DNA of 64,000 nt from NCBI GenBank assembly GCA_037127255.1, contig JBANSL010000009.1:37345475-37409474 (forward strand), written 5' to 3'. Below are positions 1 to 63,251 of the stretch, in pieces (positions within the stretch are counted from its first letter, which is position 1; the number at the start of each line of letters is the position of its first letter). The DNA is from Persicaria tinctoria. Taxonomy: Eukaryota > Streptophyta > Magnoliopsida > Caryophyllales > Polygonaceae. Position numbers and translations under genes: made by a program. The notes below the pieces were generated by a model that was given only the letters and a program-made list of their open reading frames with translations, made no database searches and had not been told where the DNA came from.

Positions 1-303
1 TTAGGGATAGAAGACAAATCGCATAAAAATCTGACCTTTATCGCATCGCCTCACATGGCCACCGTCGGGCTCACCCCAGCCCCAGAAGTGGGTGGACTAC
101 TCACTCCTCATCGCAATCGCAGACATTGAATTGATGAAAGAAACTTGCATAAAACTATATTCAAAGCCTTTTACAATCTTGGCAATCAACTTTCGCTGTA
201 AGCCAAAACCCTAAAAACCTTAGAACTCCTAAACTACTCTACTTGTGTCTCTGAAATTGAATCTAACTGAAATTGAATGATTGAAAAACCAGCCCCTAGG
301 GCC

Positions 304-312
304 TTATTTATA
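304..312 (-). promoter_or_regulatory. LTR TATA-like box
   Basis: The minus strand reads TATAAATAA within a block (TATAAATAAgg/cCCTAGGGGC) found in all five LTR copies of this family in the window. It lies about 1.1 kb into the LTR on the coding strand, a plausible U3/R boundary. Function is inferred from sequence and position only. Confidence 0.6.
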
Positions 313-514
313 GGCTTCATTCCCTAGCTAATCTAGGAAAGAAGATATCTATCTATATCTAAAATTATATCTACTTGCTTTAAAGATAAATAAAATGTTT
401 AATGGAATTAAATCCATAAGGGAAAAGATAAAACTAAATATGGAAATATGTCTTCATGTTGATAGATCTTGTCTCTTTGGATAGAACTTGATAGATCGGA
501 TAGAATCTTCGGCC

Positions 515-1175
515 AAGTCGAATCCTTCGCGCCCAAGGAATCCAAATCCTAGTCGAACAGCTCACGTCGAGAAGATTCTGGAACTGGCTCTAGTCGACTT
601 CGAGGAAGCTTCGTCGACCTCGACAAGGCTGGCTCGTCGAGTGGACTTCCTCGGGTTGGTGTGCTCGATGTGGCTCGGACTGGGCTCCTGGTGCTTGTCG
701 ACCTCGAGTAACCCTTGTCGATGTCGAGTAGACTGGCTCGCCGACTAGGGTTTCTCGAGCGTCTTTCCTCGATGGGCTTCGGATCTGGACTCAGGCTCGT
801 CGATCTCGACCAACTGCTCCTCGAGATCGACCAGGGTTCGTCGGAGATGGCTCTGGTGGGCTTGTCGAGGATTCCTCCCCGGACTTGCTCTGGTTCTCTT
901 GTCGATCTCGACAAAGGTTCGTCGAGATCGAGTAGATCTGGTGCTCGGCTTCTCGTCCTCGGCTTCTCGGGCAGCTCTTCTCCTCGTCGACTCCGGGCAT
1001 GACTTTGGGGTTTTTGTCGACCTCGACCATTGGCTCGTCGAGATCGAGTAAGGTCCCGGAGTCTGGGTTGTCTGGCTTGCTCGATCAGGTCTTGTCGATC
1101 AAGGTTGGTCGGCCAAGTCTTGTCTAGGTCGAGTAGACTTACTCGAGATCGAGTAGACCTGACTCCTAGACTTGT
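515..1175. repeat. TCGA-NN-TCGA motif cluster in the U3 of element 1
   Basis: About eleven copies of two TCGA palindromes separated by exactly two bases (for example GTCGACCTCGAC, CTCGAGATCGAG, GTCGATGTCGAG), plus many single TCGA sites. They are irregularly spaced and separated by GC-rich, non-repeated DNA. This is not a tandem array. The cluster lies upstream of the TATA-like box on the minus strand. Confidence 0.85.
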
Positions 1176-1413
1176 TCCGCTGCTTTGACCTTGGACTTCT
1201 GTAGTGGTTTTCCGAGCTTTTCCGACCTTCTGTAGAATTGCTGTAAAACGCCTCGATTTCTGCGATTTAAACAGAAACTGGTGTAGATTCCATAATTTGG
1301 CAAATAAACATAAATTACACAGATTCTGTACTATCTAATCCCCAAATGAATGCAATGTATACAGAAATCGATATAAAAGTTGCTGTAAAACATGGCAGAT
1401 TCCGCTCACAACA

Positions 1414-1430
1414 AACACCCCATACTTAAG
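1414..1430 (-). other. Polypurine tract region of Athila-like element 1
   Basis: On the minus strand CTTAAGTATGGGGTGTT directly precedes the 3' LTR start TGTTGTGAG. The same sequence is next to the LTR in element 2 (50024-50040), and with one change in element 3 (61595-61611). This is the expected position for priming plus-strand synthesis. Confidence 0.7.
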
Positions 1431-2881
1431 CTTGCTTGTCCTCAAGCAATACTTTTATTTGTCATTCAGGGGAAGAATTCAAACTCTCAACATCTTAGAT
1501 TCATTCTTATATGTCCCCTACAATCAATTACCATCCTCGAAAAGGTACTTATGTCACAGATCCATGCATGTGCAATTTAAAAAGCAACATCTACTCACAA
1601 AAGGAGGGTTATGCAAAAACATTCATAAGTGACAAAGCATTAATAATCAAGAGGACTTTAATTTAAGCTCAACAAGGAGTAGATTGGTAAAAGGCTAAAG
1701 GTGGGCAATTTTTGGCCATGTGGTGCTTTTATGATCCGGGGAAATGGATCACTTTCAAACTTGAATTTCCACATTCCTTCTTCCTTTGATTCATCACCTT
1801 TCATAATGCTTTTATTCATAATAATGCTTTTACCTCTCTAACCTCAACACTGCCTTCTCGTGAGTCGCAAACATGGGTGTCATGAATGGCCCCGGATACT
1901 TAGTGCGTCGGACTCCTCACAATGTGTCCCATCTCTCCAAACTATTATCTTAGAGAGCAGGGTCAATCTACCTTTATCTCCTGAGGTGATTGGATTTTCT
2001 TTCACTCATTAAATTTTCCATATATTTCAAATAATTTCCTTCCAAACTCCATAAACACCATATAACATCTCCATAATGTAACATCATTCTCAACATAATC
2101 CCCGGATAAGGTAAAGAATGGAAATATTTAGATCATGTGGAGCAATATTTGAAATAAGGCATATTATGGCTTTTGTGATGCATAAGCATAGGTAAGGCTA
2201 GGAATTAACAATGAGCATTATATGGAAATATTAAGTCCTCCATCATTTTATCATGCAACATGTCAAAAGCAAATTCAAATTTTACCTCCTTTCATGGTTT
2301 TCAAGAAAATAATGCACTTCATTGTGACTTCCCTTTACTAGGCAATTTCATGCTATATCTCTAATGAATCTAATTTTGCATCGTCGAGTTCCATATAAGC
2401 TTCCATGACTTTATTCAAAAAATTCAATGGGGGTCATTTTTCTTTAAATTTTGGAAAACATGTATATAAGCACATAAGGCAATAATGCATTCCAAAATAG
2501 CCATGTATCAATTCAAAGAAATAATGCACCAAGTCATGTCAAATATGATCAAATATGCACAAAGTAAGCTCTTCCCCCACCCCATACTTAAACATTACAG
2601 TGTCCTCACTGTATATAAAACAATGTAAAAGGGTAAAGAAAGAAACTCACAAGACAGATGTACAGAGCCGCATAATTTCGAATGGAGCACCTCCTGGGCC
2701 GATTATTAATGTAGCTTGGTTCCATCCATGGACCTGAAAAGTAGAAGACATATACCCATAATAGCAAAACTAAAAGTGTTCAAAACAAAAAAAAAAACAA
2801 AAAACAAAGTCTCAAATGTCCTAAAAAGTCTATGTACATGCTCTAGATTTTATAGTCGCTAGGCCGACTTTCCATTAATGC
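1431..2881 (-). other. Non-coding region between pol end and 3' LTR, element 1
   Basis: About 1.45 kb without a convincing ORF. It lies where Athila relatives carry an env-like region, but no env-like ORF is visible. It is collinear with 50041-51850 of element 2 and 61612-63251 of element 3. Shared blocks include the segment around 1850-2000 and the short block just after the pol stop at about 2845-2875. Conservation of a non-coding stretch in three copies could reflect common descent or packaging and 3'-end signals. Confidence 0.75.
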
Positions 2882-3019
2882 TCAAGGTGGCATCTGCAGG
2901 GCCCATGTAGCTTGGGCTTCAAATAGGACTCCATTCTTGTCCATCAGCTGTAATCCTCCAGAATGGATCTTGTTCACCACAAACGGTCCCATCCGCTTCT
3001 TGTTGAATTTGTTGGGAAA
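2882..3019 (-). pseudogene. Integrase C-terminal remnant
   Basis: Forty-five codons that stay in frame with the ORF upstream across a TAG at 3020-3022 and end at a TGA (2882-2884). The translation contains KKRMGPFVVNKIHSGGLQL, matching the 'W/M-GPF' C-terminal module of plant Ty3/gypsy integrases. The upstream VGDKLYVS segment fits the same module. The catalytic integrase core is missing, so this is the tail left by a large deletion of RT, RNase H and the integrase core. It might still contribute a chromatin-binding tail if the TAG is read through, but I treat it as non-functional. Confidence 0.75.
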
Positions 3020-3838
3020 CTAATGATCCTTTGACTTAGAGACATAGAGCTTGTCTCCAACTTCGTACTCCTTAGGCTCATCATTGGAAATCCTGCACAA
3101 TCGCACATACCAAGGCAGACCTCTCCCATGTATAGATAAATCTTTAATGGAAATAGGAGAAGAAAGATCCATACCTTGACTCACCTTTGCGGAAACGGAA
3201 TCGGGGACCACTGTGTTTGGTCGATCTCGACTAGGGCTAGTCGATCTCGACAAGTCTGCTGGTCCTGGTGGTGGTCTGGTCGAAGAGGCAGAAGTCGACG
3301 AAGAACAGGTCTTGTCGACCTCGAGTTGGCTGGTCGACCTCGACAAGGACTCTGCTCCTGGTGGTGGTGGCTTCATCGAGGACACAGGATCTGGTGGCGC
3401 CTGGAGGTGGTCGACCTCGACAAGGCTACTCGAGGTCGACGAGGGTTCTGGTCCTGGAGTCAGCGTCGTCGATGAAGGTGGCTCTGGTGGTGCTAAGTGT
3501 TGGTCGACCTCGACAAGGCTACTCGAGGTCGAGTAGCCTTCTCCTCCTGGTGGCTTGCTCGTCGAGGAGGGCGGCGCTGGGCTCTCCGAGGGGTGGTCGA
3601 GATCGACGAGAGTGTTGTCGACCTCGAGTAGACTCGGCTTGTCTGGTTCGCTGCTCGATGAAGCTGGCGCTGGTGGAGTCTCCGTGGTCTGGTCGAGATC
3701 GACTAGGGTTCTACTCGATGTCGAGGAGCCCTGGTCGATCTTGACCCCATACTTAGCTCCTTTGTTCTCTTTAAGGATTGCCATGATCTCCTCTACCTGG
3801 GCCTCCATGTCCCTCTTTTCCAGCTCCTCAGGGGTCAT
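3020..3838 (-). CDS. Low-complexity acidic/Ser-Thr polyprotein segment built from TCGA motifs
   Basis: A 272-residue ORF in frame with the protease ORF, separated from it by a TAG (3848-3850) and three codons. The N-terminus (MTPEELEKRDMEAQVEEIM) is a charged helix. The middle, about residues 35-205, is a degenerate repeat alternating VDLD/VEVD with STSS/SRSTS and Pro-rich spacers. The C-terminus (VGDKLYVSKSKDH) belongs to the integrase tail. The middle is encoded by the TCGA-NN-TCGA cluster at 3213-3745. It sits where RT, RNase H and the integrase core should be, so the repeat replaced or bridges the deletion. Opposite-strand ORFs here are shadows. Whether it is translated depends on readthrough of two TAG codons or on internal initiation. 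No enzyme domain is recognised. Confidence 0.6.
   Translation of the reverse strand: MTPEELEKRDMEAQVEEIMAILKENKGAKYGVKIDQGSSTSSRTLVDLDQTTETPPAPASSSSEPDKPSLLEVDNTLVDLDHPSESPAPPSSTSKPPGGEGYSTSSSLVEVDQHLAPPEPPSSTTLTPGPEPSSTSSSLVEVDHLQAPPDPVSSMKPPPPGAESLSRSTSQLEVDKTCSSSTSASSTRPPPGPADLSRSTSPSRDRPNTVVPDSVSAKVSQGMDLSSPISIKDLSIHGRGLPWYVRLCRISNDEPKEYEVGDKLYVSKSKDH
3213..3745. repeat. TCGA-NN-TCGA motif cluster inside the pol remnant
   Basis: About twelve copies of the spaced TCGA pair in 530 bp, with spacers CC, TC, GA, GG and TG. Because the unit is 6 bp and keeps frame, it encodes VDLD/VEVD in one frame and STS/SRS in another. A related smaller cluster lies at 4577-4775 in the gag-protease linker. 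Confidence 0.85.
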
Positions 3839-3847
3839 ATTCCTGAC

Positions 3848-5206
3848 CTAGGGTTCCCCGCAGGTGATGTAGCCAGCTGAGATAGATTTGACCTCTTCCA
3901 TCGGACCCGTATATCTTTCAGTTTTGTTGAAGGAATACTCAATCACTTCATCGCTGATGTTGAAAGTGAGCACTCCTTTCCGTACGCTTATGTTGGCATC
4001 CACCGTCGCCAAAAATGGCCTTCCTAAAATAATTGGACAAGCAGGATCTTCTTGCATATCAACTTTTAAGAAATTAGCATGAACGAAGAATTTACCTACT
4101 TGTACTGGGACATTTTCCACCATGCATGTTGGTATGACCACCGTGTTGTGGGCCATATAAAGTCTAGCATCCACAGGCTCCAGGGCACCTATCTTAATCT
4201 TGGACCAAATCGTTAAAGGCATAATACTGACACTAGCTCCAAGATCACATAGGGCATTAATTTTGTATGGACCAAATCCAATAGTTATAGCAAACTTACC
4301 TGGATCCGGCCTCTTCTCCAGTATGTCCAGATGGCTGCACTCCTCTCTGATTTCTGCCATCGATCGCTTTTTGCTCAGAATCTCTTTCAGGAACTTGACA
4401 TAGGACGGCATTTCATTGAGAGCTTCTGTGAAGGAGATGGTGACATTGAGCTTCTGAAGCATCTTGATGAAGCGCTGAAACGTTTTCTCCGCCGGGTCCT
4501 TTAGAGATTTTGTTGGGAAAGGCAGCTTCTTTTTCTGAGTCGGAGCCAGAACAGACGTCGGAGTTGCTGCAGATTTCTCTATGTCGACCAGGGGCTCCTC
4601 GATGTCGACTACAGGCTTGTCGACTTCGACCAGATTGGGCCCAGTCGATTTGCTGTTCGGCGCAGACGACGATTCTGGAGATTTCTCCTCGACCTCGAGT
4701 AGACCTTTGTCGAGGTCGACTAGGCTCTGGTCGAGATCGACGACGGGTTTGTCGACCTCGACTTGCTGTTCCTCGCTGTTCTGCTGCTTTCCAACTTCTG
4801 GCTCTTGAAGTTGATGGCCGCTTCTGAGTTTTACAACAGCTATGTGTCCAGTCTTTCCCTTAGGATTTGGTTCTGTTTGCCCAGGGAGCTTGCCGGACTG
4901 TCGTGGGATCTGTGCAGAAATCTGTCCTATCTGCGTCTCAATTCCCCTTTTCCAGATGTCCAGTTCTCCAAATTTGGTGGTGATGTTCTGGAACTGGTTG
5001 TTGATGGTCCCTTGATTTCGTCGCATCTCCTCAAGGATTAGCTGCAGATCATCTTTCTTTTGATCCCTTTCTGGATGTCCTGGAGCTCTGTAGGGTGGAG
5101 GATTCCTAGGGGGACCTTGGTTCCATTGCTGTTGATAATGCCTTTGATCCCCCATATAGCGATTAGGCCCTCCTGCGTAAGCTGCATCCTCATGATGTTC
5201 TGCCAT
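3848..5206 (-). CDS. Gag C-terminus plus retropepsin-like protease
   Basis: A 452-residue ORF in the same frame as gag, separated by one TAG (5252-5254). Order: a Gln/Pro-rich linker (to about residue 60), a helical segment with IETQIGQISAQIPRQSGKLPG, then a linker with VEVDK/VDLDQ repeats from a TCGA cluster (about residues 145-215). A conserved pre-protease segment follows (KKKLPFPTKSLKDPAEKTFQ), and then the aspartic protease (about 305-420) with ALCDLGASVSIMP and the IILGRPFL motif. DLGA rather than D-S/T-G is usual in Athila-type elements (established for the family). The enzyme would cleave the polyprotein in the virus-like particle. The ORF ends at TAG (3848-3850), but the frame stays open beyond it. 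The missing RT means it cannot act alone in transposition. Confidence 0.85.
   Translation of the reverse strand: MAEHHEDAAYAGGPNRYMGDQRHYQQQWNQGPPRNPPPYRAPGHPERDQKKDDLQLILEEMRRNQGTINNQFQNITTKFGELDIWKRGIETQIGQISAQIPRQSGKLPGQTEPNPKGKTGHIAVVKLRSGHQLQEPEVGKQQNSEEQQVEVDKPVVDLDQSLVDLDKGLLEVEEKSPESSSAPNSKSTGPNLVEVDKPVVDIEEPLVDIEKSAATPTSVLAPTQKKKLPFPTKSLKDPAEKTFQRFIKMLQKLNVTISFTEALNEMPSYVKFLKEILSKKRSMAEIREECSHLDILEKRPDPGKFAITIGFGPYKINALCDLGASVSIMPLTIWSKIKIGALEPVDARLYMAHNTVVIPTCMVENVPVQVGKFFVHANFLKVDMQEDPACPIILGRPFLATVDANISVRKGVLTFNISDEVIEYSFNKTERYTGPMEEVKSISAGYITCGEP
4577..4775. repeat. TCGA motif cluster in the gag-protease linker
   Basis: Six TCGA-NN-TCGA pairs in about 200 bp. On the minus strand they encode VEVDKPVVDLDQ-type repeats, with further VDIE variants. 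The acidic reading is the same as in the 3213-3745 cluster. Confidence 0.8.
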
Positions 5207-5251
5207 CCTGACTTGCTCTGTGTGTGGGCACTCAGTAGTGGTGTGCCTTTG

Positions 5252-6262
5252 CTATCCGCATTCTATGCAAGGCTGATTGACAGAGAGATACTTCACTTGT
5301 TTGAGGAGCTTCTTATTCTGGTCTCTGTAGTATTGCTCCCTGACATCAGGATCAATTTCCTTTGCTGGCTCATAGAGTGGCATAGATCGTGCTGGCCTGG
5401 CGTATGGGTTCTCTTCATAAGTTGCAGTAGACCCATATTTGTTGTCGTAGTTGGTGAGCTTTTCTAGCACACCCCATGCGTCACTTGGCGGCATCGTCAG
5501 ATACTCGTAGTGAGTATAATTGTTGATTCTGTCCTTAGTGACTTGGTCAAGAGAGTTGAAGAAGATCTCCTGAATGATGTAGGGTGGTTGTCCATGAGTA
5601 GGGCAAGATCGCAGAAGTTCCTTGTAGCGCTCCCATGCCCTTGCCAGCGGTTCCCCTTTCTGCTGTTTAAAGGCGGTGATTTTTTGGCGGAGATGTGCTG
5701 TTTTGGCCGGTGGGAAGAATTTGTTCAGAAACTCTTGCTCTACTTGGGCCCAGGTTGTGAGTGATCTTGCTTTCAGCCCTTCCAGCCATTTCAGTGCAGG
5801 CCCAGCGAGAGACCAGCGAAAAGATTTCATCTTGACATATTCCAAGGTTGTGCCTTCTGCAAGAGTACGACACATATCATGAAAATTAGTAATATGTTCA
5901 AGAGGACACTCATTAAATCTGCTGTAAAAGGCATTATTTTTAAGCTCTATAAGAAATTGAGTGCGAATTTCAAAAGAGTTTTCAGGGATTAGAATCGCCG
6001 ATTCAGGCACGACGAGCGTGGGATGCATATAATCTTCAGCAGTGGTTGGATATTGGGCAAGCTCAGCTTGTGCTTGTTCCTTTTCTGCTCTCTCAGCGGC
6101 GAGAGCAGCATCCCTGGCGGCTAGATCCCTGGTAAGCCTAGCGATCAGCTGCTCCTGTGTTTCAGCGTCCTCCATGGCTCTTTGAAGTCTATTTCTGATG
6201 TGTAGAAGGCGCTCTGGTTCATCTAAACCGTAGTACTCATGTGGGATACCAGAACGGCGCAT
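5252..6262 (-). CDS. Gag polyprotein (capsid) of Athila-like element 1
   Basis: A 336-residue ORF. Residues about 35-75 form an Ala/Glu/Arg-rich coiled coil (QLIARLTRDLAARDAALAAE). Residues about 105-235 match the plant retrotransposon gag capsid domain: LIELKNNAFYSRFN, ALKWLEGLKARSLTTWAQ, FLNKFFPPAKT and the FFNSLDQVTKDRIN end. The ORF stops at TAG (5252-5254) exactly inside a zinc knuckle. CIEC is before the stop, and an H and C at family spacing (QRHTTTEC) follow in the same frame. The ATG at 6262 is the first in frame after the primer site and 5' leader. Gag would form the virus-like particle and bind RNA. The stop could be decay or a leaky stop that separates Gag from Gag-Pro. Confidence 0.9.
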   Translation of the reverse strand: MRRSGIPHEYYGLDEPERLLHIRNRLQRAMEDAETQEQLIARLTRDLAARDAALAAERAEKEQAQAELAQYPTTAEDYMHPTLVVPESAILIPENSFEIRTQFLIELKNNAFYSRFNECPLEHITNFHDMCRTLAEGTTLEYVKMKSFRWSLAGPALKWLEGLKARSLTTWAQVEQEFLNKFFPPAKTAHLRQKITAFKQQKGEPLARAWERYKELLRSCPTHGQPPYIIQEIFFNSLDQVTKDRINNYTHYEYLTMPPSDAWGVLEKLTNYDNKYGSTATYEENPYARPARSMPLYEPAKEIDPDVREQYYRDQNKKLLKQVKYLSVNQPCIECG

Positions 6263-6324
6263 ACACCTGAAAAGTAACTCAAGAGAAAAGTGAGAACTGA
6301 CTACCTAAGGCGCGATTGATAGCT

Positions 6325-6342
6325 TCCCCGGCAACGGCGCCA
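6325..6342 (-). other. Primer-binding site for tRNA-Asp
   Basis: The minus strand reads TGGCGCCGTTGCCGGGGA, the perfect complement of the last 18 bases of plant tRNA-Asp including CCA. It lies three bases inside the 5' LTR. It fixes the element on the minus strand and fits the Athila/Tat group. Confidence 0.92.
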
Positions 6343-7360
6343 ATTTGTTGTTGCAGAAGGATGGTCAAGTATAGAATAGAATATGGTCTAGAACGACTCC
6401 CCTGTCTCAGCAAATAATTACAAGACTTCCTCCCGTTGTAGTAAGAGAAAAGTCAGGATCGAATCCACGAGGAAGCACGTCAGCAGTTCTTAGGTAGCTA
6501 TCAGATTCTCACAACAGCAGCAGAAAAACATAGAAACAAACACAGAAGCAGAAACAAATAATCCCGGCAAGGGCAACTAAGACAAAAGCAAATAAAAGAC
6601 AGAAATAAAAGCAAATAAAGCAAAGCAAGAACGAAAGCAAAGACAGAAAGTAACCAACTCGACTTAGACCAGCACTACTCGACTTCGACAAAGAACAACT
6701 CGAGATCGACAAAGGGCTAGTCTATGTCGACAAGAAATAGCAAAAGACAAAATCGCAGATTTTCGACAGAATGCAGAAATTTTAACAGAAATTTACTTCA
6801 ATATATAAAAAGACCTCCAAGGCTAGGGTTTTAACACCACAACGGTAACCATGCAAAACAACACATAAAGGCATAAAAGATCATGCTTTCCATCAAATAA
6901 CTTTCGTCATTAACAACTAGGCATATAGAGGCTCTCGCATAAACCCTAATTGTTACTAACCCTTTTTCACATAATTAATCCAAGTTGCATTAAGATCACT
7001 TTCGCTTCAATAACACAAACAAGGATCACCTTCAACTCTCGCAAAAGAATCATGCTCTTAGGGATAGAAGACAAATCGCATAAAAATCTGACCTTTATCG
7101 CATCGCCTCACATGGCCACCGTCGGGCTCACCCCAGCCCCAGAAGTGGGTGGACTACTCACTCCTCATCGCAATCGCAGACATTGAATTGATGAAAGAAA
7201 CTTGCATAAAACTATATTCAAAGCCTTTTACAATCTTGGCAATCAACTTTCGCTGTAAGCCAAAACCCTAAAAACCTTAGAACTCCTAAACTACTCTACT
7301 TGTGTCTCTGAAATTGAATCTAAATGAAATTGAATGATTGAAAAACCTGCCCCTAGGGCC

Positions 7361-7369
7361 TTATTTATA
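7361..7369 (-). promoter_or_regulatory. LTR TATA-like box (5' LTR of element 1)
   Basis: TATAAATAA on the minus strand. This copy lies in the 5' LTR, so it would drive the element's genomic RNA. Function is inferred. Confidence 0.6.
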
Positions 7370-7571
7370 GGCTTCATTCCCTAGCTAATCTAGGAAAGAA
7401 GATATCTATCTATATCTAAAATTATATCTACTTGCTTTAAAGATAAATAAAATGTTTAATGGAATTAAATCCATAAGGGAAAAGATAAAACTAAATATGG
7501 AAATATGTCTTCATGTTGATAGATCTTGTCTCTTTGGATAGAACTTGATAGATCGGATAGAATCTTCGGCC

Positions 7572-8232
7572 AAGTCGACTCCTTCGCGCCCAAGGAATCC
7601 AAATCCTAGTCGAACAGCTCACGTCGAGAAGATTCTGGAACTGGCTCTAGTCGACTTCGAGGAAGCTTCGTCGACCTCGACAAGGCTGGCTCGTCGAGTG
7701 GACTTCCTCGGGTTGGTGTGCTCGATGTGGCTCGGACTGGGCTCCTGGTGCTTGTCGACCTCGAGTAACCCTTGTCGATGTCGAGTAGACTGGCTCGCCG
7801 ACTAGGGTTTCTCGAGCGTCTTTCCTCGATGGGCTTCGGATCTGGACTCAGGCTCGTCGATCTCGACCAACTGCTCCTCGAGATCGACCAGGGTTCGTCG
7901 GAGATGGCTCTGGTGGGCTTGTCGAGGATTCCTCCCCGGACTTGCTCTGGTTCTCTTGTCGATCTCGACAAAGGTTCGTCGAGATCGAGTAGATCTGGTG
8001 CTCGGCTTCTCGTCCTCGGCTTCTCGGGCAGCTCTTCTCCTCGTCGACTCCGGGCATGACTTTGGGGTTTTTGTCGACCTCGACCATTGGCTCGTCGAGA
8101 TCGAGTAAGGTCCCGGAGTCTGGGTTGTCTGGCTTGCTCGATCAGGTCTTGTCGATCAAGGTTGGTCGGCCAAGTCTTGTCTAGGTCGAGTAGACTTACT
8201 CGAGATCGAGTAGACCTGACTCCTAGACTTGT
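7572..8232. repeat. TCGA-NN-TCGA motif cluster in the 5' LTR
   Basis: A duplicate of the 515-1175 cluster through the LTR pair. One difference lies at its edge, where this copy has an extra TCGA (GTCGACTCC against GTCGAATCC in the left LTR). Confidence 0.85.
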
Positions 8233-8470
8233 TCCGCTGCTTTGACCTTGGACTTCTGTAGTGGTTTTCCGAGCTTTTTCGACCTTCTGTAGAATTGCTG
8301 TAAAACGCCTCGATTTCTGCGATTTAAACAGAAACTGGTGTAGATTCCATAATTTGGCAAATAAACATAAATTACACAGATTCTGTACTATCTAATCCCC
8401 AAATGAATGCAATGTATACAGAAATCGATATAAAAGTTGCTGTAAAATATGGCAGATTCCGCTCACAACA

Positions 8471-10977
8471 ACATGCATTAGGGTTGCTAGATGATGAACG
8501 AGAGTACATTGATAGGGTCATTGAGGCAAGCTTTTGGGGATCTGCCCATTACTTGCGAACTTTATTTGTCATGTTGTTACTATCTGGTGTCATGTGTCAA
8601 CCCGAGCTTTTGTGGGATAAAACTTCGCATTTGTTGTCCGAAGATATTCTTATCCAACAAAGACATCACCTCAGGATGCCAGGTTTGCATTATCCTTTTT
8701 TTTTCATAACTATTGGTTTCCGTAATATCTTAATTTTATCATATAAATATCTACTAATATTTTTTCATTTCAATGTAATACCCACCCACGTTTTGGAAAG
8801 ATGAAAACTAAAGTACCCACCCACACACATTTTGTTTTTTTTTTATTCGGAAGTAACAACCCACGTTCTGTAAATATGAAATACACTACCCACCCATCCA
8901 CATTTTGTTTTTTTTTATTCGGAAGTAACAACCCACATTCTGTAAATATGAAATACACTACCCATCCACCCACATGTGTAAACATTAAAAAAACTACCCA
9001 CCCACCCCCCCATGTTTTGTAAAGATTAAAAAAAACTATCCACCCATGTTTTGTACAGCTTAAAAACAACTATCCACCATAATCAAAATAAAAAAGTGGA
9101 ACGTAGGTAACCACCACGTTTTTTGTTTCTTTTTACTTATCTTTTGAATTTATAATATTCTATAATTAATTTGTATGCTCATATATTACTTTCATGCAGA
9201 TTTACAACTATCCGAAGAACAATTGAAACATTACGCATTAGCAGAGGTTGAGATGTTGTTGCGAAGAAATGGTAGCTCTCTAAGGCGATATCCTTCCTTA
9301 CCGTCCCCAAATGATACCTTGATTGCTACTGGTAATAACATTCTTATTCAAGAGGAGTTGCGCCATAATGTTCCCGAGTTAAAGACAGAGCATTCACGAT
9401 TATTGTCCAGTTTCACAGAAGAACAACGGTGTGTTTATGATGAAATTATGGGTGCTACCAGAGCCGAGGGGGGGGGGGGGGGGGAGTTTTTTTTTTCTGT
9501 ATGGTTATGGAGGAACTGGGAAGACATATATTTGGAAAGCACTTACCGCTGCTATTCGAAGTGAAGGGCATATTGTTTTGAATGTGGCACTGAGTGGCAT
9601 TGCGACACTTCTACTTCCTGGGGGAAGGACTGCACATTCCAGGTTTGCCATTCCCTTACAAATACATGAGGACTCTATGTGTGAAATTCGTCCTGGTACT
9701 CCTTTGGCGGCATTAGTTGCAGCAGCGAAACTTATAATCTGGGATGAAGTACCTATGACTAATAGATTTTGTTTTGAAGCTTTGGATCGAAGCTTACGAG
9801 ATGTCCTCAAGTTTTCCAATCCTCACAGTGAAACATAACCATTCGGGGGGAAAGTTGTGGTCTTTGGTGGTGATTTTAGGCAAATATTGCCCGTTGTTGC
9901 ACGAGGAAGTAGACAGGACATTGTATCTGCTACAATAAACTCTTCCTATCTATGGCGTGATTGCAAGGTAAATACTTTTTTCATAGCTACTTACGTTCAT
10001 TTATTAATTTGGCCAAATGTTTCCTATTAGATGCACGATTCATCTAATAAAAGAAAGTGTTTTACAACTACGTAGGTACTCTAATTGACTAGGAATATGA
10101 GACTATCTTGTGGCCAAGTTGATTCTGATGTGGAAGAATTGAAGGAGTTCTCAGATTGGGTGCTACGAATTGGTGATGGAGTCGAGGGTAATGATAATGA
10201 TGGTGAAGCTATTGTTCATTTTCCACCTGATCTTCTTATTCCTTACACAAATGATCCAATTGGAGCCATTGTTGTTGCAGTATATCCAAATGTATCAGAT
10301 CATTTGATGGATTCTACTTACTTCCAAGAAAGAGCCATCCTAGCCCCAACACATGAAGTCGTGGATAAGGTAAATGGCTATGTACTCTCATTAATCCCTG
10401 GAGAGGAGAAGGTATTTTTGAGTTCAGATAGCCTTTGCAAGTCAGATGTTAATATAGAAGGACAAGGAGCTATTTACTCGGCCGAATATTTGAACACTAT
10501 CAAATGCTCAGGGATACCTAATCATAACATTACACTGAAGGTAGGGTTCATGTGATGTTACTTCGCAACTTGGATCAGTCTCTTGGCTTATGTAATGGAA
10601 CTCGGCTAATCATTACACGATTGGGAAATCATATATTGGAGGCAAAAATTATGTCTAGGACGCATGCTGGTCATAAGGTCCCTATACGGCGCATGGTATT
10701 ATCACCTTCGGACACATTGCTGCCATTCAAGTTTCAACGCCGACAGTTCCCATTGATGGTTTCATTTGCTATGACTATTAACAAGAGTCAGGGACAATCT
10801 CTTTCACAATTTGGTCTCTTCCTACCGAAGCCAGTGTTCACCCATGGACAATCATAGGTAGCTATGTCTAGAGTTACTAGCAGAGCTGGATTGAAAGTCT
10901 TAGTTTCTGACAATGAAGGTAATGCTTCATCTACTACCACTAATGTAGTGTATAAAGAAGTTTTTCAGAATGTATGA
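8471..10977 (+). pseudogene. Helitron PIF1-like helicase, decayed
   Basis: Recognisable exons are about 8471-8682, 9200-9967 and 10076-10977, with GT-AG introns at 8683-9199 and 9968-10075. Motifs in order: ALGLLDDEREY, EEQLKHYALAEVE, TEEQRCVYDEI, Walker A GYGGTGKT (about 9500-9525), Walker B WDEVPM, GGDFRQILPVV, then after intron 2 TRNMRL, MLLRNLDQSLGLCNGTRL and AMTINKSQGQ, ending with SRVTSRAGLKVLV. Damage: a long G run and T run before Walker A (about 9468-9495) shift the frame, a TAA follows GGDFRQ's exon start region at about 9836-9838, a stop follows intron 2, a one-base loss lies near 10540-10555, and a TAG replaces the codon before VAMSRV. The protein would have unwound DNA for rolling-circle transposition. 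Confidence 0.88.
8777..9090 (+). repeat. Degenerate minisatellite within Helitron intron 1
   Basis: Imperfect tandem copies built around CTACCCACCCA and TGTAAATATGAAA. Two longer units of about 75 bp contain a T run followed by ATTCGGAAGTAACAACCCA. It lies wholly between the splice sites at 8683 and 9199. Confidence 0.75.
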
Positions 10978-47668: not shown

Positions 47669-47988
47669 ATGAACAGTACAAACCCTAACAAGATCGAAAT
47701 TAATGGCGAAGTTGATTTGAAGGGAAAGAAAGTGGCTGAGGAGACGCCATTGAATGTTGGGAATGCAAATCTAGTCCAAATGGTGGGTAAAGCCATAAAT
47801 GCGGAAGAAGGTCATGTATTTAAGGAATCTGTGGGAATGAATTTCTCCCAAGCCGTCAAAAGTAGGCCAGCGACCAAATTTGAGGGGGCTAGATCAGTTC
47901 CGGTGAGTCCGTTTGCTGATAATCGGAATATCCAGAGGGTGGAGAAGCTCACACTGTTTGAGGATGTCGAGAAAGGTAAGCTTAAAAT
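47669..47988 (+). pseudogene. LINE ORF1-like protein, N-terminal part (split by Athila-like element 2)
   Basis: ATG at 47669 opens an ORF (MNSTNPNKIEINGEVDLKGK...) leading into MNFSQAVKSRPATKFEGA and a VSPFADNRNIQRVEKLTLFE segment, typical of the start of plant LINE ORF1 proteins just ahead of a DUF4283 domain. About 190 bp upstream (47478-47668) is GC-rich and could be the LINE 5' leader. The ORF is broken after GKLKI by element 2 at TSD AAAAT (47984-47988). The residues after that point come from the inserted LTR. Such proteins bind LINE RNA. The remainder is at 53901. Confidence 0.65.
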
Positions 47989-48985
47989 TGTTGTTGCAGG
48001 AGGTAATCGAGTATGAAATAAATTTAAAGTATAAATCAGAATGACTTCCCTGTCTCAGCAAATAATACAAGACTTCCTCCCGTTGTAGTAAGAGAAAATC
48101 AGGATCGAATCCACGAGGAAGCACGTCAGCAGTTCTTAGATAGCTGTAGATTCTCACAGAAGCAGAGCAACAGAAAGACAGAAACACAAAAACATAAATA
48201 AACCCGGCAAGAGCAACTAAAACAAAAGCAAAGATCTAACTAAAGATAGAAAGTAAAGCAAAGGAAGTAAAGAACAAAGCAAAACAGAAGCAAATCAACT
48301 CGACCTAGACGAAGCCCTCCTCGAGATCGACCAGATCTCCTCTATGTCGAGTAAAAACAGTAAAAGACAGAAACTTTAAAATTGCAGAATTCAAACCGAA
48401 ACTCAGATTTTCGACTGAAATAAACTTCAATATATTAAAAGACTTCCAAGGCCAGGGTTTCAACACCACAACGATAACCATGCAAAGTAACACATAAAGG
48501 CATAAAAGATCATTCTTTCCATCAAATAACTTTCGTCATTAACACATAGGCATATAGAGGCTCTCGCATAAACCCTAATTGTTACTAACCCTTTTTCACA
48601 TAATTAATCCAAGTTGCATTAAGATCACTTTCGCTTCAATAACACAAACAAGGATCACCTTCAACTCTCGCAAAAGAATCATGCTCATAGGGATAGAAGA
48701 TGAATCGCACAAAAAGATCTGATCTTTATCGCATTGCCTCACATGGCCACCGTCGGGCTCACCCCAGCCCCAGAAGTGGGTGGACTACTCACACCTCATC
48801 GTAGTAACAGACATTGATTGATGAAAAGAAACTTGCATTAAAACTAAATTCAAAAGCCTTTACAATCTTGGCAATCAACTTTCGCTGAAAGCCAAAACCC
48901 TAAAAACTTTAGAACTCCTAAACTTCTCTATGCATCTAACTAATTGTCTCTTGAATTGAATGAATAAAACTGAGCCCCTAGGGCC

Positions 48986-48994
48986 TTATTTATA
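48986..48994 (-). promoter_or_regulatory. LTR TATA-like box (element 2, 3' LTR)
   Basis: Minus-strand TATAAATAA in the same context as in element 1. Confidence 0.55.
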
Positions 48995-49261
48995 GCCTTC
49001 ATTCCCTAGCTAATCTAGGAAAGAAGATATCTATCTCTATCTAAAATTATATCTAAAACTTGAAAGGATAAATAAATTTTTTATGGAAATAAATCTAAAA
49101 GGGAAAGATAAAACTAAATAGGGTAAGTCTTCATGATGTTGATAGATCTCGTCTCCCATGGATAGACTTGATCAACTTTGGATAGATCTTCGGCCATTCT
49201 TGGATTCCTTCACGCCGAAGTAAAGCTAAACCGAGTAGGACTCGTCACGACGACGCGTTTC

Positions 49262-49645
49262 TGGAAACTGGGTCTACTCGACCTCGACCACGGCCTTGTC
49301 GATCTCGAGTAGCCCTCGTCTATCTCTAGTAGCCCTCGTCTGTCTCGAGTAGCCGGTGCTCGACAAGGCTCGGACATGGCTCGGAGGTCTAGTCGATCTC
49401 GAGTAGCCCTACTCTGTCTCGAGTAGAGGTGGTCTGCGTCTTCGTCTTCGGCTTCTCGGCTCGGCACCGCTCATCGACTCCGGACATGGCTCGTCGATCT
49501 CGACCAAGTCTACTCGAGATCGAGTAGGGTTCCGGGAGTCGGGTTGTCTCTGACTCAGTGTCCTCGACCAGCCCTACTCGACCAGGTGTGGTCGAACAGT
49601 TCTTGTCGAGATCGAGTAGAGGCTTGTCGATCTCGAGTAGAGTTC
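49262..49645. repeat. TCGA motif cluster, element 2 LTR
   Basis: Pairs such as CTCGACCTCGAC, GTCGATCTCGAG and GTCGAGATCGAG, mixed with decayed variants (TCTATCTCTAG, TCTGTCTCGAG) that keep the spacing but lose the CG. This suggests that the motif erodes with age. Confidence 0.8.
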
Positions 49646-50023
49646 TCTCAGCTTTCTGTTCTGTTCTTGAAATGCACTTTACCGAGTCCTCGTTTGTCGG
49701 ATTGACGCATATGACCATGCGTTGGAAAGCTCTTTCCGAGGGCTACAACTCTCATGAAGACATCAAAGCTTGATTCAGAACGAAGAATGGTGAAAATGGC
49801 CTTTTCTCCAGCTGCACCATTCTTGGCTTCTCCATGAGTTTCCTTTAAGCTCCAAAGTGCGTCCGATTTCTGCGAAATATAACCAAAACTTGTGTAGACC
49901 TCCATATATTGCAAATAAGTGTAAACTACACAGATTCTGTATTGTTCTAACCCAAATGTATGCGATGTATGCAGAAATCGATATAAAAGTAAATGTAAAA
50001 CATGGCGAATTAGGCTCACAACA

Positions 50024-51850
50024 AACACCCCATACTTAAGCTTGCTTGTCCTCAAGCAATACTTTTAATTGTCATTCAGGGGAAGAATTCAAAACTCTCA
50101 ACATCTTAGATTCATTCTCATATGTCCCTGCAATCAATTACCATCCTCGAAAAGGTCCTAGTGTCACAGATTCATGCATGTGCAATTTAAAAAGCAACAT
50201 CTACTCACAAAAGAAGGGTTATTCAAAAACAATATAAGTGACAAAGCATTGATAATCAAGAAGACTTTAATTTAAGCTCATGAAGGAGTAGATTGGTAAA
50301 AGGCTTAAGGGTGGGCAATTTTTGGCAATGTGGTGCTTTTGATCCGGGGAAATGGAGTATTTCCAAACTTTGAGTTTCATTCCACATTCTTTCTCCATAT
50401 AATTCATCACCTTTCATATTGCTTTTCTCAATAATAATGCTTTTACCTCTCTAACCTCAGCACTGCCTTCTCGCGAGTCGCAAACATGGGTGTCATGAAT
50501 GGCCCCGGATACTTAGTGCTTTGGACTCCTCACAATGTGTCCCATCTCTCCAAACTATTATCTCAGAGAGCAGGGTCAATCTACCTTTATCTCCTGAGGT
50601 CATTGGATTTTCTTTCACTCATTAAATTTTTCATATAATTCAAACAATTTCCTTCCAAACCCCAATAATGATAAACACAACAACCATATAACAATCTCCA
50701 TAATGTAACATCATTCTCAACATAATCCCCGGATAAGGTAAAGAATGACCATATTTAGATCATGTGGAGCAATAATTGAAATAAGGCATATTTTGGCTTT
50801 TGTGATGCATAAGCATGGGTAAGGCTAGGATTATAACAATATGAGCATTATATGGAAATATAAAGTCCTCCTTTTATGGGTAAGACTATTATCTCAGAGA
50901 GCAGGGTCAATCTACCTTTATCTCCTGAGGTGATTGGATTTTCTTTCACTCATTAAATTTTTCATATAATTCAAACAATTTCCTTCCAAACCCCAATAAT
51001 GATAAACACAACAACCATATAACAATCTCCATAATGTAACATCATTCTCAACATAATCCCCGGATAAGGTAAAGAATGACCATATTTAGATCATGTGGAG
51101 CAATAATTGAAATAAGGCATATTTTGGCTTTTGTGATGCATAAGCATGGGTAAGGCTAGGATTATAACAATATGAGCATTATATGGAAATATAAAGTCCT
51201 CCATCCTTTTATCATGCTACATGTCAAAAGCAACTTCAAATTTTACCTCCTTTTATGGTTTTCAAGAAATAATGCACTTCATCATGACTTCCCTTTACTA
51301 GGTAATTTCATGCTATATCTCTAATGAATCCAATTTTGCATCGTCGAGTTCAATATAAGCTTTCATGACATTATTCAAAAATTTCAATGGGGGTCATTTT
51401 TCTTAACTTTGGAAAACATGCATATAAAGCATATAAATCAATAATGCATTCCAAAATAGCCATGTAGCAATCCAAAGCAATAATGTACATATATGTCAAA
51501 TATGCTCAAATATAGCAAATATGCACAAAGTAAGCCCTTCCCCCACCCCATACTTAAACATTACAGTGTCCTCACTGTATAAAAAACAATGTAAAGGGTA
51601 AAGAAAGAAACTCACAAGACATGAGTGCAGAGCCGCAAAATTTCGAATGGAGCACCTCCTAGTCCGAGTATTAATGTAGCTTGGTTCCATCCATTGACCT
51701 GAAAAGTAGAAGACATATACCTATAATAGAAAAAACCAAAATGTTCAAAACCAAAAACAAAAACAAAAACAATGTCCAAAAAGAATGTCCTAAAAAGTCT
51801 ATGTACAAGCTCTAGATTTTATAGTCGCTAGGCCGACTTTCCATTTAGCA
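50024..51850 (-). other. Non-coding 3' region of element 2
   Basis: Collinear with 1414-2881 of element 1, including the polypurine tract at 50024-50040. It contains a roughly 330-bp direct duplication at 50554-51215. No ORF. The TCGA cluster that element 3 has at 62930-63085 is absent here. Confidence 0.75.
50554..51215 (+). repeat. Tandem duplication of about 331 bp inside element 2
   Basis: Positions 50554-50871 recur at 50885-51202 (offset 331) and are almost identical, beginning ACTATTATCTCAGAGAGCAG and ending AAAGTCCTCC. Elements 1 and 3 have a single copy, so the duplication is specific to this insertion. Confidence 0.85.
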
Positions 51851-52578: not shown

Positions 52579-52582
52579 CACA
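52572..52582. other. Deletion junction with microhomology, element 2
   Basis: The codon-side sequence GCGATCA(GCTG in element 1) is joined to the LTR-side sequence (GAATCA)CACAAAA seen in element 3. ATCA is shared by both sides. A clean deletion removed the ORF start, leader, primer site and 719 bp of LTR, consistent with end joining or template switching at microhomology. Confidence 0.7.
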
Positions 52583-53895: not shown

Positions 53896-53900
53896 AAAAT

Positions 53901-59346: not shown

Positions 59347-60538
59347 TGTTGTTGCAGGAGTAAGTCAAGTATAGAATAGAATATGGTTTAGAACGACTCC
59401 CCTGTCTCGGCAAATAAATACAAGACTTCCTCCCGTTGTAGTAAGAGAAAAGTCAGGATCGAATCCACGAGGAAGCACGTCAGCAGTTCTTAGGTAGCTA
59501 TCAGATTCTCACAGAAGCAGCAGAAAGACAGAAACACAAGCAGAAACAGAAATAAAACAGAAACAAATAATCCCGGCAAGGGCAACTAAAGCAAATAAAA
59601 GCAAAGCAAAGACGAAAACAACAGAAACTAAAAGCAAAGTAACAGTCTTGTCGATCTCGACAAACTCTTACTCGAGATCGACCACGGCAATCGACAACAG
59701 CAAGTCGACAATCACAGCAGACAAGAAATCCCGGCAAGGGCAACTCGACCTCGACAAGAGGTACTCGACTTCGACGAAGAAAGGCAAAGACAGAAACTTG
59801 AAAATCGACAAGAGACAGAAACTTCAACTCGACCTAGACTGGTCCTACTCGATCTCGACTAAGGCCAACTCGAGATCGACGAAACTCTACTCTATGTCGA
59901 CAAGAACAGAAATTTAAAGGAAATTAAATTGCAATTGCTCAAAACCCAAACTCAGCTGTTTGACAGAAAATAAACTCAATATATAAAAGGACCTCCAAGG
60001 CTAGGGTTTCAACACCACAACGATAATCATGCAAAACAACACATAAAGGCATAAAAGATCATGCTTTCCATCAAATAACTTTCGTCATTAACAAATAGGC
60101 ATATAGAGGCTTTCGCATAAACCCTAATTGTTACTAACCCTTTTTCACATAATTAATCCAAGTTGCATTAAGATCACTTTCGCTTCAATAACACAAACAA
60201 GGATCACCTTCAACTCTCGCAAAAGAATCATGCTCATAGGGATAGAAGATGAATCACACAAAAGATCTGACCTTTATCGCATTGCCTCACATGGCCACCG
60301 TCGGGCTCACCCCAGCCCCAGAAGTGGGTGGACTACTCACGCCTCATTGCAATCGCAGACATTGAATAAAAAGAACTAACTTGCATAAAAATAAACCAAA
60401 GTTTACAACCGCTCGAAGCCAATCTCCGCTCTCGCTTCACAACTCCAACCGGCTGCTCACTCTCTCTCTACTTCTCCTACTTACTTCTCTCTCCAATTGA
60501 ATCTAGAATTGAACGAATAAAACTGAGCCCCTAGGGCT

Positions 60539-60789: not shown

Positions 60790-61350
60790 CCTACTCGGAC
60801 AAGGCTACGTCGAGCAGCTTCTGGAATCTGGGTCTAGTCGATTTCGACAAGGTCTCGTCGACCTCGACCACGATGGTTTCGTCGACTGGACCTGGCTGGC
60901 TTCTCTACTCGATGTGGCTCGTTTTGGTTCACTGGGCTCTTGTCGACTTCGATTTGGCCTCGTCGACTTCGACAAGGGCTAGGGCCATCGACTAGACCTC
61001 CTCGGGTTGCTCAGACATGGCTCAGGGCGGCTCGTCGATCTCGACAAAGGTTAGTCGAGATCGAGTAGAGGTGGCTCGGACAAGGACTCAGGCGCTCGTC
61101 GACTTCGACAAGCCCTAGTCGACTTCGAGTACGGTGGCTCGCCAACTAGGGTTTCTCGAGCAGCTCTCCTCGAGGGACTCCGGATCTGGTGATGTGGCTT
61201 CGTCGACCTCGAGTAACGGTCCTCGAGATCGTGTTGGCTTCGGAGCTCGGGGAGCTTGGTTCTCGATCATGGCTTTGTCGACTAGGCTGTGCCCGGACAT
61301 GCTCGTCTAGGTCGAGTAGGCTTACTCGAGATCGAGTAGCCTCGACTCTC
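60790..61350. repeat. TCGA motif cluster, element 3 LTR (U3 side)
   Basis: Many TCGA-NN-TCGA pairs (GTCGATTTCGAC, GTCGACCTCGAC, GTCGACTTCGAC, CTCGAGATCGAG). Several sit at sites where element 1 has a different pair or none, so the motifs turn over between copies. Confidence 0.8.
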
Positions 61351-61594: not shown

Positions 61595-63251
61595 AACACC
61601 CCAGACTTAAGCTTGCTTGTCCTCAAGCAATACTTTTATTTGTCATTCAGGGGAAGAATTTAAACTCTCAACATATCAGATTCATTTTTATATAACCCTG
61701 CAATCAATTACCATCCTCGAAAAGGTACTAGTGTCACAAATCCATGCATGTGCAAATATGTAAGAGAAACATCTACTCACAAAATGAGGGTTATGCACAA
61801 ATAATTCATACGTGACAAAGCATTGATAATCAAGAAGACTTTAATTTAAGCTCATGAAGGAGTAGATTGGTAAAAGGCTAAAAGGTGGGCAATTTCTGGC
61901 AATGTGGTGCTTTTTTGATCCGGGGAAATGGAGTACTTTCCAAATTTTGAGTTTCATTCCACATTCTTTCTTTCTTTGATTCATCACCTTTCATATTGCT
62001 TTTTTCAATAATAATGCCTTTACCTCTCTGACCTTAGCACTGCCTTCTCACGAGTCGCAAACATGGGTGTCATGAATGGCCCCGGATATTTAGTGCTTTG
62101 GACTCCTCACAATGTGTCCCATCTCTCCAAACTATTATCTCAGAGAGCAGGGTCAATCTACCTTTATCTCCTGAGGTGATTGGATTTTCTTTCACTCATT
62201 AAATTTTCCATACAATTCAAACAATTTCCTTCCAAACTTCATATAAGATAATAATCACAACAACCATATAACAATCTCCATAATGTAACATCATTCTCAA
62301 CATAATCCCCGGATAAGGTAAAGAATGGCAATATTTTAGAACGTGTGGAGCAATATATGAAATAAGGCATATTATGGCTTTTGTGATGCATAAGCATAGG
62401 TAAGGCTAGGATTACAAAGCATATGAGCATTATATGGAAATATAAAGTCCTCCATCATCTTATCATGCAACATGTCAAAATCAACTTCAAATTTTACCTC
62501 CTTTCATGGTTTTCAAGAAATAATGCACTTCATTGTGACTTCCCCTTACTAGGCAATTTCATGCTATATCTCTAATGAATCCAATTTTGCATCGTCGAGT
62601 CCAATATAAGCTTCCATGACATTATTTCAAAATTTCAATGGGGGTCATTTTTTTCGGGGTCATTTTTTCAAGATTTTTGGAAAACATGCATATAAGCACA
62701 TAAATGAATAATGCATTCCAAACTAGCCATGTATAAGAAATTTCAAGAAATAAACCTTAAAAATGCACACATAATGTCAAATAAAATCAAATATGCATAA
62801 AGTAAGCCCTTTCCCCACCCCATACTTAAAATTTACAGTGTCCTCACTGTATATAAAACAATGTAAAGGGTAAAGAAAGAAACTCACAAGACATGAGTGC
62901 AGATCGTCGGAAATCGAGTGAAGAAGTGCTGCAGTGCTTGTCGATCTCGACAATTCTAGTCGATCTCGAGAACTTGTCGATGTCGACAACATCTCTTCGA
63001 CATCGAGTAACTTGGCTGCCTCCAGGGTGATCTTCTCGACAGAGGCTAACTCGATGTGGTTTTGTCGACGTCGAGTTCTTTTCCTCATGTCGACAAGACT
63101 GTAGCCATTCCTGCAAGATTCGATAGAAAAAATATCCACAATAGTATAACCCTAAAAAACAAACAAACAATGTCCAAAAAGTCCCAAAATAAAAAGTCTA
63201 TTTACAAGCTCTAGATTTTATAGTCGCTAGGCCGACTTTCTCCATTTAGCA
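61595..63251 (-). other. Non-coding 3' region of element 3, with a TCGA cluster
   Basis: Collinear with 1414-2881 and 50024-51850. At 62930-63085, just downstream of the ORF on the minus strand, there are at least five TCGA-NN-TCGA pairs. Small ORFs there on the minus strand (up to 120 codons) read as SRDR/STS strings and are probably shadows. Confidence 0.75.

What the first reader, a model, noticed from the sequence alone, without database searches (positions are those of the whole stretch)
515..8232. Dense TCGA-NN-TCGA motif shared by LTRs and coding regions of one retroelement family
Pairs of the TCGA palindrome with an exact 2-bp gap cluster in the U3, U5, gag-protease linker and pol remnant of element 1, and in elements 2 and 3, but not in neighbouring LARDs, LINEs or the copia element. 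Spacing is constant while the middle bases vary (CC, TC, GA, GG, TG, CT), and copies are dispersed rather than tandem. Possible roles are a protein-binding site, symmetric CG methylation targets, RNA dimerisation or packaging signals, or a self-spreading short repeat.
Basis: seen in the sequence. Interest (0 to 1): 0.78.

Follow-up and report, generated by a model that had tools for sequence, protein, structure and literature searches.

The report
Paired TCGA palindromes in plant retroelements
A family of plant retroelements is studded with a strictly spaced DNA motif whose outer letters hardly change while its two middle letters differ from subfamily to subfamily, which looks like an array of docking sites for a DNA-binding protein that switches the element on or protects it from silencing.

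Summary
TCGA-N2-TCGA occurs 78 times in the window, all in three related LTR elements (19.0 kb), none in the other 45.0 kb; shuffles average 0.3. The unit is an 18-bp palindrome, YTNS-TCGA-NN-TCGA-SNAR, usually paired at 19-21 bp (two helical turns), with pairs recurring about every 90-125 bp. In the 1.68-Gb host genome the 20-bp-spaced pair occurs 110,830 times, the reversed control 4 times. Across 11 U3 arrays the core is 97% conserved, spacers 63%, NN 58%. NN is not free: it labels subfamilies (GA/TC with CC/GG, TA, or TG/CA). Coding copies sit in three frames and ignore synonymous codons. Best reading: sites for a dimeric DNA-binding protein upstream of the LTR TATA box, possibly a VANC-like element-encoded activator or anti-silencer. 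It resembles Sirevirus palindromic repeats but lies in a Ty3/gypsy, probably Athila-like, gag-protease element without pol. RNA hairpins, protein-level selection and neutral repeats fit less well. The binder is unknown; no binding or methylation data were available.

The parts
6346..8470 (-). 5' LTR of element 1 (E1), TG...CA, ~2.1 kb; the window starts inside its 3' LTR (1-1413)
   Evidence: LTR end words and PBS found on the minus strand; LTR copies 99.65% identical over 1414 bp
7651..8209 (.). E1 U3 array: 11 units in 6 clusters, upstream of the TATA box; its duplicate in the 3' LTR is 594-1152
   Evidence: all 11 units identical between the two LTRs
7362..7369 (-). TATAAATA box of the 5' LTR
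   Evidence: the nearest unit starts 269-299 bp upstream in 11 of 12 arrays listed, in the twelfth 217 (the 12 come from 11 of 17 loci, and L202 and L209 are pieces of one element)
6679..6709 (.). E1 R-U5 pair, two units 21 bp apart
6323..6342 (-). Primer binding site TGGCGCCGTTGCCGGGGAAG next to the LTR end
   Evidence: match to tRNA-Asp type recalled, not tested
5252..6304 (-). gag frame (Retrotrans_gag PF03732, E 9.4e-17)
3848..5251 (-). gag end, linker and protease-like region; no Pfam match of its own at E 0.01, but many listed relatives carry aspartyl protease domains
4599..4761 (.). six units in the gag-protease linker, all in one reading frame, 21-bp steps within the two groups (peptides VDLD, VEVD, LEVE, VDIE)
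3221..3724 (.). twelve units in the linker after the protease, six pairs every 93-96 bp, in three reading frames
3020..3847 (-). linker plus a conserved C-terminal segment (WYVRLCRIS...), no Pfam match
48321..48330 (.). E2 R-U5 unit
49278..49636 (.). E2 U3 array, 7 units; duplicate in its second LTR at 53149-53507
59651..59879 (.). E3 R-U5 units, three pairs
60838..61335 (.). E3 U3 array, 10 units
62941..63074 (.). E3 internal non-coding units, five

Best explanation
Each unit is a double-stranded DNA site for a symmetric (dimeric) sequence-specific protein. Each half reads TCGA-SNAR, inverted around a 2-bp centre. Two dimers sit side by side on one face of the helix (20-21 bp, two turns). Such pairs are repeated about every 9-10 turns in the U3 upstream of the LTR TATA box, and also lie in R-U5 and in coding linkers that tolerate them. 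Bound cooperatively, the protein raises transcription of the element or keeps it free of silent chromatin. The middle NN is the part by which a subfamily's units match that subfamily's own binder. Shown here: motif, palindrome, spacing, position, core conservation, subfamily-specific NN. Inferred: that a protein binds, that it is a dimer, that binding activates or protects. The binder is unidentified; subfamily-specific NN favours an element-encoded one over a single host factor.
For: k=2 pairs 78 in the family, 0 elsewhere. 110,830 paired units genome-wide against 4 reversed controls. 18-bp palindromic consensus over 60 units. Steps of 19, 20 or 21 in 119 of 126 neighbours within 40 bp in 16 loci. 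Cluster-to-cluster distances over all arrays show a period of 10.0-10.3 bp (76 distances p 0.002, 136 distances p 0.0065, against jittered clusters). E1 against E3: core 87/88, NN 14/22, spacers 197/326, LTR outside the array 359/418; control windows of the same shape fully conserved 17 of 312. Eleven U3 rows: core 0.973, flank 0.726, spacer 0.634, NN 0.579. NN homogeneous within loci: entropy 1.41 against permuted 2.12, minimum 2.01 of 2000. At an aligned U3 pair four elements keep the core while NN reads TT/TA, TG/CA, TC/GA and TC/GA. Coding copies in three frames; in 13 VDLD-type peptides 25 of 26 V/L/I codons end in TC, against 59 of 183 elsewhere. Nearest unit at a near-constant distance from the TATA box.
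Against: No binding, expression, methylation or small-RNA data. No DNA-binding protein was found; the E2/E3 ORF has no Pfam domain and its model has mean pLDDT 52. Alignment can pull motifs into register and inflate core identity. E1 against E2 is weaker: core 70/88, 6 of 11 units in place, CpGs in units kept 16 of 22. Helical phasing is not significant in the E1 U3 or E2 U3 arrays alone. NN complementarity within pairs (11 of 29 exact reverse complements, 4.4 expected) is not predicted by independent dimers. Loci for the NN test come from one contig (C1) and the window, were chosen because they hold pairs, and share ancestry.
Confidence: 0.68

Rival explanations
1. RNA hairpins: paired units fold back into 11-bp stems in the transcript and serve packaging, dimerisation or stability.
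For: Six of 8 folded stretches fold better than shuffles (z -2.6 to -5.8). Middle NN of paired units are complementary more often than expected (28 Watson-Crick cells, 17.2 expected, p 0.0016). A-C mismatches are rarer than expected (2, expected 5.9).
Against: TCGA is its own complement, so stems come free and shuffles do not allow for that. Of the six other position pairs that a stem would join none is enriched in the full set and four are lower (for example -1/10: 12 against 15.4; 10/-1: 12 against 16.3). G-U is not raised (4, expected 5.5). Two of 8 stretches are near the shuffles (z -0.4, -1.2). Single units without a partner also occur.
Confidence: 0.08
2. Neutral tandem-repeat decay or self-spreading repeat: an old ~93-105 bp satellite inside the element, with the motif kept by recent copying and no function.
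For: 93-bp tandem array at 3314-3607; masked spacers agree at lag 93 (0.466, mean 0.282); some units share flanks (pairs at 0.6 identity or more: 2 of 276 in L204, 18 of 703 in L203, 8 of 703 in L205, 4 of 465 in E1, shuffled 0); whole elements in an array with ~6.67 kb period.
Against: Copying would carry NN and spacers along; both diverge while the core does not. Mean flank identity of units within one locus is 0.31-0.36, shuffled 0.28-0.30. Exact units outnumber all single-change neighbours 267 to 83.
Confidence: 0.12
3. Protein-level selection: the units encode VDLD/VEVD/VDIE peptides, resembling SUMO-interacting motifs (recalled), and the DNA pattern is a by-product.
For: Twelve of 18 coding units, and six of six in the gag-protease linker, are in that frame. 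Of five relatives of the E3 ORF, P0121 and P0124 carry 3 and 7 such peptides at steps that are multiples of 7 residues.
Against: Six of 18 coding units are in other frames; 42 of 60 non-redundant units lie outside the frame; synonymous codons are hardly used. P0122, P0123 and P0125 have no such peptide, and the 3 of P0121 are not above the shuffle maximum of 4.
Confidence: 0.04
4. The CpGs themselves matter: a CpG island or methylation target without a specific binder.
For: U3 CpG o/e 1.14 against 0.76-0.83 for the three elements and the middle of the window.
Against: A CpG island needs neither an exact 2-bp gap, nor TCGA rather than any CG, nor two-turn pairing. Other CpGs in the array are lost freely.
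Confidence: 0.08

Closest known systems
Sirevirus palindromic repeated motifs (RM), Bousios et al. 2010, PMC2829016 (sections 9 and 10 and passages read)
   Same: Short palindromes, 8-32 copies per element, mostly in the LTR upstream of the TATA box, with clusters that define CpG islands, and extra copies in the internal region; the motif differs between elements while a core signature stays.
   Different: Those are Ty1/copia with a CGG-CCG core (except Tnd-1, ACAATCGATTGT); this is a Ty3/gypsy-type gag-protease element with TCGA-NN-TCGA, paired at two helical turns, with copies inside the gag-protease frame and an NN that labels subfamilies.
VANC target motifs of VANDAL DNA transposons, Hosaka et al. 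2017, PMC5735166 (passages read); Sasaki et al. 2023, PMC10398659 (abstract and section list read)
   Same: Dense, family-specific short motifs; tandem-repeat layer; units within a copy diverge together; specificity differs between related families.
   Different: The VANC21 motif YAGTATTAY is arrayed in one orientation and mainly non-coding; the VANC protein is known and element-encoded. Here no binder is known and the host element is a retrotransposon.
Athila non-autonomous families, Marco and Marin 2008, PMC2410132 (passages read)
   Same: LTRs plus gag without pol, multiplying as families.
   Different: The passages seen mention no such motif; here gag is followed in frame by protease, linker and a C-terminal segment.

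Membership tests
Sirevirus RM system | Host element is a Ty1/copia Sirevirus | tested here: not met
   gag matches Retrotrans_gag PF03732 and relatives are plant gag/DDI1-protease proteins; no copia pol found in E1
Sirevirus RM system | CGG-CCG core | tested here: not met
   the units were picked by TCGA-NN-TCGA; neighbouring columns show no CGG-CCG
Sirevirus RM system | Palindromic motif in many copies upstream of the LTR TATA box | tested here: met
Sirevirus RM system | Cluster coincides with CpG-rich stretch | tested here: met
   CpG o/e 1.14 in the E1 U3 (7400-8471), 0.77 in E1 as a whole; one stretch only, islands not predicted
VANC-type anti-silencing | Dense family-specific motif arrays, units diverging together | tested here: met
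VANC-type anti-silencing | Element-encoded protein that binds the motif | tested here: inconclusive
   no candidate DNA-binding domain in the ORFs scanned; no autonomous partner seen
VANC-type anti-silencing | Loss of DNA methylation over the array | not testable with these tools
   no bisulfite data
Athila lineage (Ty3/gypsy) | Reverse transcriptase phylogeny | not testable with these tools
   no RT found in the ORFs scanned
Athila lineage (Ty3/gypsy) | gag type, tRNA-Asp-like PBS, long LTRs | tested here: inconclusive
   PF03732 gag and ~2.1 kb LTR; PBS type recalled, not tested

The most novel reading that the evidence does not exclude
An LTR retrotransposon has evolved a self-recognition code: an invariant TCGA scaffold read by a dimeric, element-encoded DNA-binding protein, with a 2-bp centre that acts as a subfamily key (GA/CC, TA or TG), so that each subfamily activates or unsilences only its own copies. 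Binder and key coevolve, VANC-like, but in retroelements and with a palindromic paired-site architecture that reaches into coding sequence.
Probability: 0.3. Interest if true: 0.88.

Novelty: new variant of a known kind. Interest (0 to 1): 0.74.

Why it matters
Over 100,000 exact paired sites in one plant genome are a large natural experiment in the coevolution of a DNA-binding specificity and its targets. If the binder is element-encoded, this would extend sequence-specific anti-silencing from DNA transposons to LTR retrotransposons and give a two-letter specificity code that can be tested directly. If it is a host factor, the arrays would offer it binding sites through much of the genome.

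Tried and rejected
RNA hairpin test: covariation only at NN. Protein-level constraint disfavoured by frames and codons. Structure of the E3 ORF: low confidence, so no fold search was made. Homologues of the 3023-3847 frame: none at E 0.001 among the 7988 candidates scored. In the 63 bacterial loci k=2 is also raised (222), but so are k=5, 8 and 11 (128, 136, 197), as codon phase would give; in the plant loci k=5 and k=8 are near zero (3 and 2 against 267). A PDB sequence search with the L205 frame gave nothing useful (one match, E 0.21). A paper search for the motif letters found 343 papers; none of the 20 titles listed is on retroelements. Searches on Athila with palindromic motifs listed no description of this motif. 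Set aside from memory only: heat-shock, auxin-response and other host sites; the consensus does not match what I recall of them.

Full report
Check of the observation. TCGA-N2-TCGA is found 78 times, all inside three related elements: E1 1-8471, E2 47988-53897 and E3 59346-64000 (19.0 kb). It is absent from the other 45.0 kb. Dinucleotide shuffles give a mean of 0.34 and a maximum of 3 in 200. Among 256 four-letter words and gaps 0-12 this is the most frequent self-pair. For later counts I dropped 18 units that lie in second LTR copies (11 in E1, 7 in E2), leaving 60.

The unit. Over the 60 units the neighbouring bases are also fixed: C or T at -4 (56 of 60), T at -3 (57), G or C at -1 (59), G or C at +10 (59), A at +12 (56), A or G at +13 (49). 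The consensus YTNS-TCGA-NN-TCGA-SNAR is an 18-bp palindrome. Left and right flanks vary independently, as expected of two half-sites. NN is YY or RR in 54, YR in 6 and RY in 0 of 60, where 10.8 RY were expected.

Arrangement. Twenty-nine neighbouring pairs have steps of 17-22 bp, 23 of them 20 or 21. In 16 loci from the window and the host genome 119 of 126 steps up to 40 bp are 19, 20 or 21. Clusters recur at 93-96 bp in the linker after the protease, at 102-126 bp in the E1 U3 and at 64-124 bp elsewhere. The array after the protease is a recognisable 93-bp tandem repeat, so 'dispersed rather than tandem' is only partly right. Distances between clusters over all arrays show a period of 10.0-10.3 bp (p 0.002 for 76 distances, 0.0065 for 136, against jittered clusters). 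Taken alone, E3 is significant on all three measures (peak 10.4), the linker after the protease on one (cosine at 10.5, p 0.0175), and the E1 U3 and E2 U3 arrays on none.

Anatomy. E1 lies on the minus strand. Its 5' LTR runs from 8470 to 6346 and is followed by the primer binding site TGGCGCCGTTGCCGGGGAAG. The TATA box is at 7369-7362 and the U3 array stands upstream of it. In the 12 arrays listed, from 11 of 17 loci, the nearest unit starts 269-299 bp upstream of the TATA box in 11 and 217 in one (L202 and L209 are pieces of one element; six loci showed no array with this TATA word). 28 of the 60 non-redundant units are in U3, 18 in the coding frame, the rest in R-U5 or internal non-coding DNA. 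gag matches PF03732; the protease region has plant gag-protease relatives. In E1, L203 and L205 the protease region is followed directly by the same linker and C-terminal segment and then the 3' region. P0001, a protein from a public contig of unnamed origin, shares that layout. None of the ORFs scanned matched a reverse transcriptase (of the L203 frame only the last 300 codons were scanned). So gag-protease-linker-C-term appears to be a family architecture. I call it Athila-like from LTR length, gag and PBS (recalled traits); the lineage was not tested by phylogeny. The E1 LTRs differ at 5 of 1414 positions, so the insertion is young.

Constraint. In the U3 alignment of E1 and E3 the eight core bases agree in 87 of 88 cells, NN in 14 of 22, other array positions in 197 of 326, and the LTR outside the array in 359 of 418. 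Ten of 11 E1 units are intact in place in E3; among non-motif windows of the same shape 17 of 312 are fully conserved. Against E2, 6 of 11 units match in place, with core 70 of 88; E2 against E3 has core 51 of 56 and NN 5 of 14. So units are also lost or gained. CpGs in units are kept 22 of 22 from E1 to E3 and 16 of 22 from E1 to E2; other CpGs in the array 15 of 31 and 8 of 31. In eleven U3 rows (110 ordered pairs, rows related) core is 0.973, flank 0.726, spacer 0.634, NN 0.579. MAFFT can bring non-homologous motifs into register, which would raise the core figure.

Coding copies. Eighteen units lie in the 3020-6304 frame: 12 in the V-[DE]-[VLI]-[DE] phase, 5 in a second and 1 in a third. 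Of 13 peptides of that type in the frame, 12 use the exact core, and 25 of their 26 V/L/I codons end in TC against 59 of 183 elsewhere. The variable residues are just those that NN touches. Selection therefore appears to act on the nucleic acid. Of five relatives of the E3 ORF, P0121 and P0124 carry 3 and 7 such peptides at steps of 7, 14 or 21 residues; the other three carry none, and only P0124 exceeds its shuffles (7 against a maximum of 5; P0121 3 against 4). This suggests the same 21-bp lattice in other copies or genomes; their DNA was not seen and their source organisms are not named.

Genome. The host genome has 1,680,257,829 bases in 221 contigs. The 20-bp-spaced pair occurs 110,830 times, the reversed pattern 4 times. 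The stricter extended pattern has 47 strand-counted matches in the window and 63 stretches in the 257-Gb prokaryote collection. Fetched loci show that NN is a subfamily label. In E1, E2, E3, L199, L205, L207, L208, L209 and L214, GA/TC and CC/GG make up 131 of 161 units (E3 and L199 are the most mixed, 12 of 21 and 7 of 11). L204, L206, L210 and L211 are TA in 48 of 53. In L203 and L213 TG/CA is the largest class, 27 of 50. L212 has only three units. Within-locus entropy is 1.41 bits against 2.12 permuted (2000 permutations, minimum 2.01; 267 units, 16 loci, L202 dropped as overlapping L209). At one aligned U3 pair the TA-type, TG-type and GA-type elements keep the core and differ in NN. Units within one locus have nearly unrelated flanks (mean 0.31-0.36 against 0.28-0.30 shuffled), though a few pairs share them, most in L203 (18 of 703). 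So the common NN is not explained by very recent copying of one unit alone. These loci are all from contig C1 plus the window and were picked because they hold pairs.

Mechanism. The simplest account is a dimeric DNA-binding protein, two dimers per pair on one helical face, with arrays upstream of the LTR promoter. Parallel change of NN at many separate units within an element while the core stays is what coevolution with a changing binder would give; the VANC motif work in Arabidopsis describes units that diverged together (PMC5735166, passages). A 2026 sunflower study reports an Athila clade with a drop in methylation in the LTRs in all contexts (PMC12844716, passages), which is compatible but is not about this motif. 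Steps not shown: the binder, the binding, the effect.

RNA. Six of eight folded stretches fold clearly better than shuffles. The NN of paired units are complementary more often than expected (28 cells against 17.2, p 0.0016), and A-C mismatches are few (2 against 5.9). But none of the six other position pairs that a stem would join is enriched in the full set, four are lower, and G-U is not raised (4 against 5.5). The NN symmetry remains unexplained; two dimers facing each other could cause it.

Comparison. Sirevirus repeats (PMC2829016) are the nearest in layout; membership fails on element type and core. VANC targets are nearest in evolutionary behaviour; membership cannot be claimed without a binder.

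Verdict. Real, not chance, and not described in the papers my searches listed (listings and the passages named, not whole texts). A new variant of the palindromic-repeat kind, with an unusual subfamily code.

Noticed in passing
51854-52609 (-) and 63255-63938 (-): E2 and E3 carry a conserved ORF without Pfam domain; five public relatives, two with VDLD-type peptides in 7-residue steps.
   Followed up: partly
L203 (G000:C1:1794000-1803999) and onward: Gag-protease elements in a head-to-tail array with a period of about 6.67 kb; one pair recurs at that step at 1796393, 1803063, 1809733 and 1816416.
   Followed up: partly
52575-53897: Second LTR of E2 is truncated: the ORF ending at 51851 begins where the LTR match starts, with U5 and primer site missing.
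   Followed up: no
50554-50871 and 50885-51202: 318-bp direct duplication, 99.7% identical, inside E2.
   Followed up: no
59346-59374: E3's left end lies against the end of a copia-like frame (57806-59374), suggesting insertion into a copia element.
   Followed up: no
L058: A viral contig piece holds 39 TCGA-N2-TCGA units, many at 6-bp steps; no link to the plant elements was looked for.
   Followed up: no
4599-4761, 3221-3724: In-frame units encode hydrophobic-acidic peptides (LVDLD, VVDIE) that resemble SUMO-interacting motifs (recalled).
   Followed up: no
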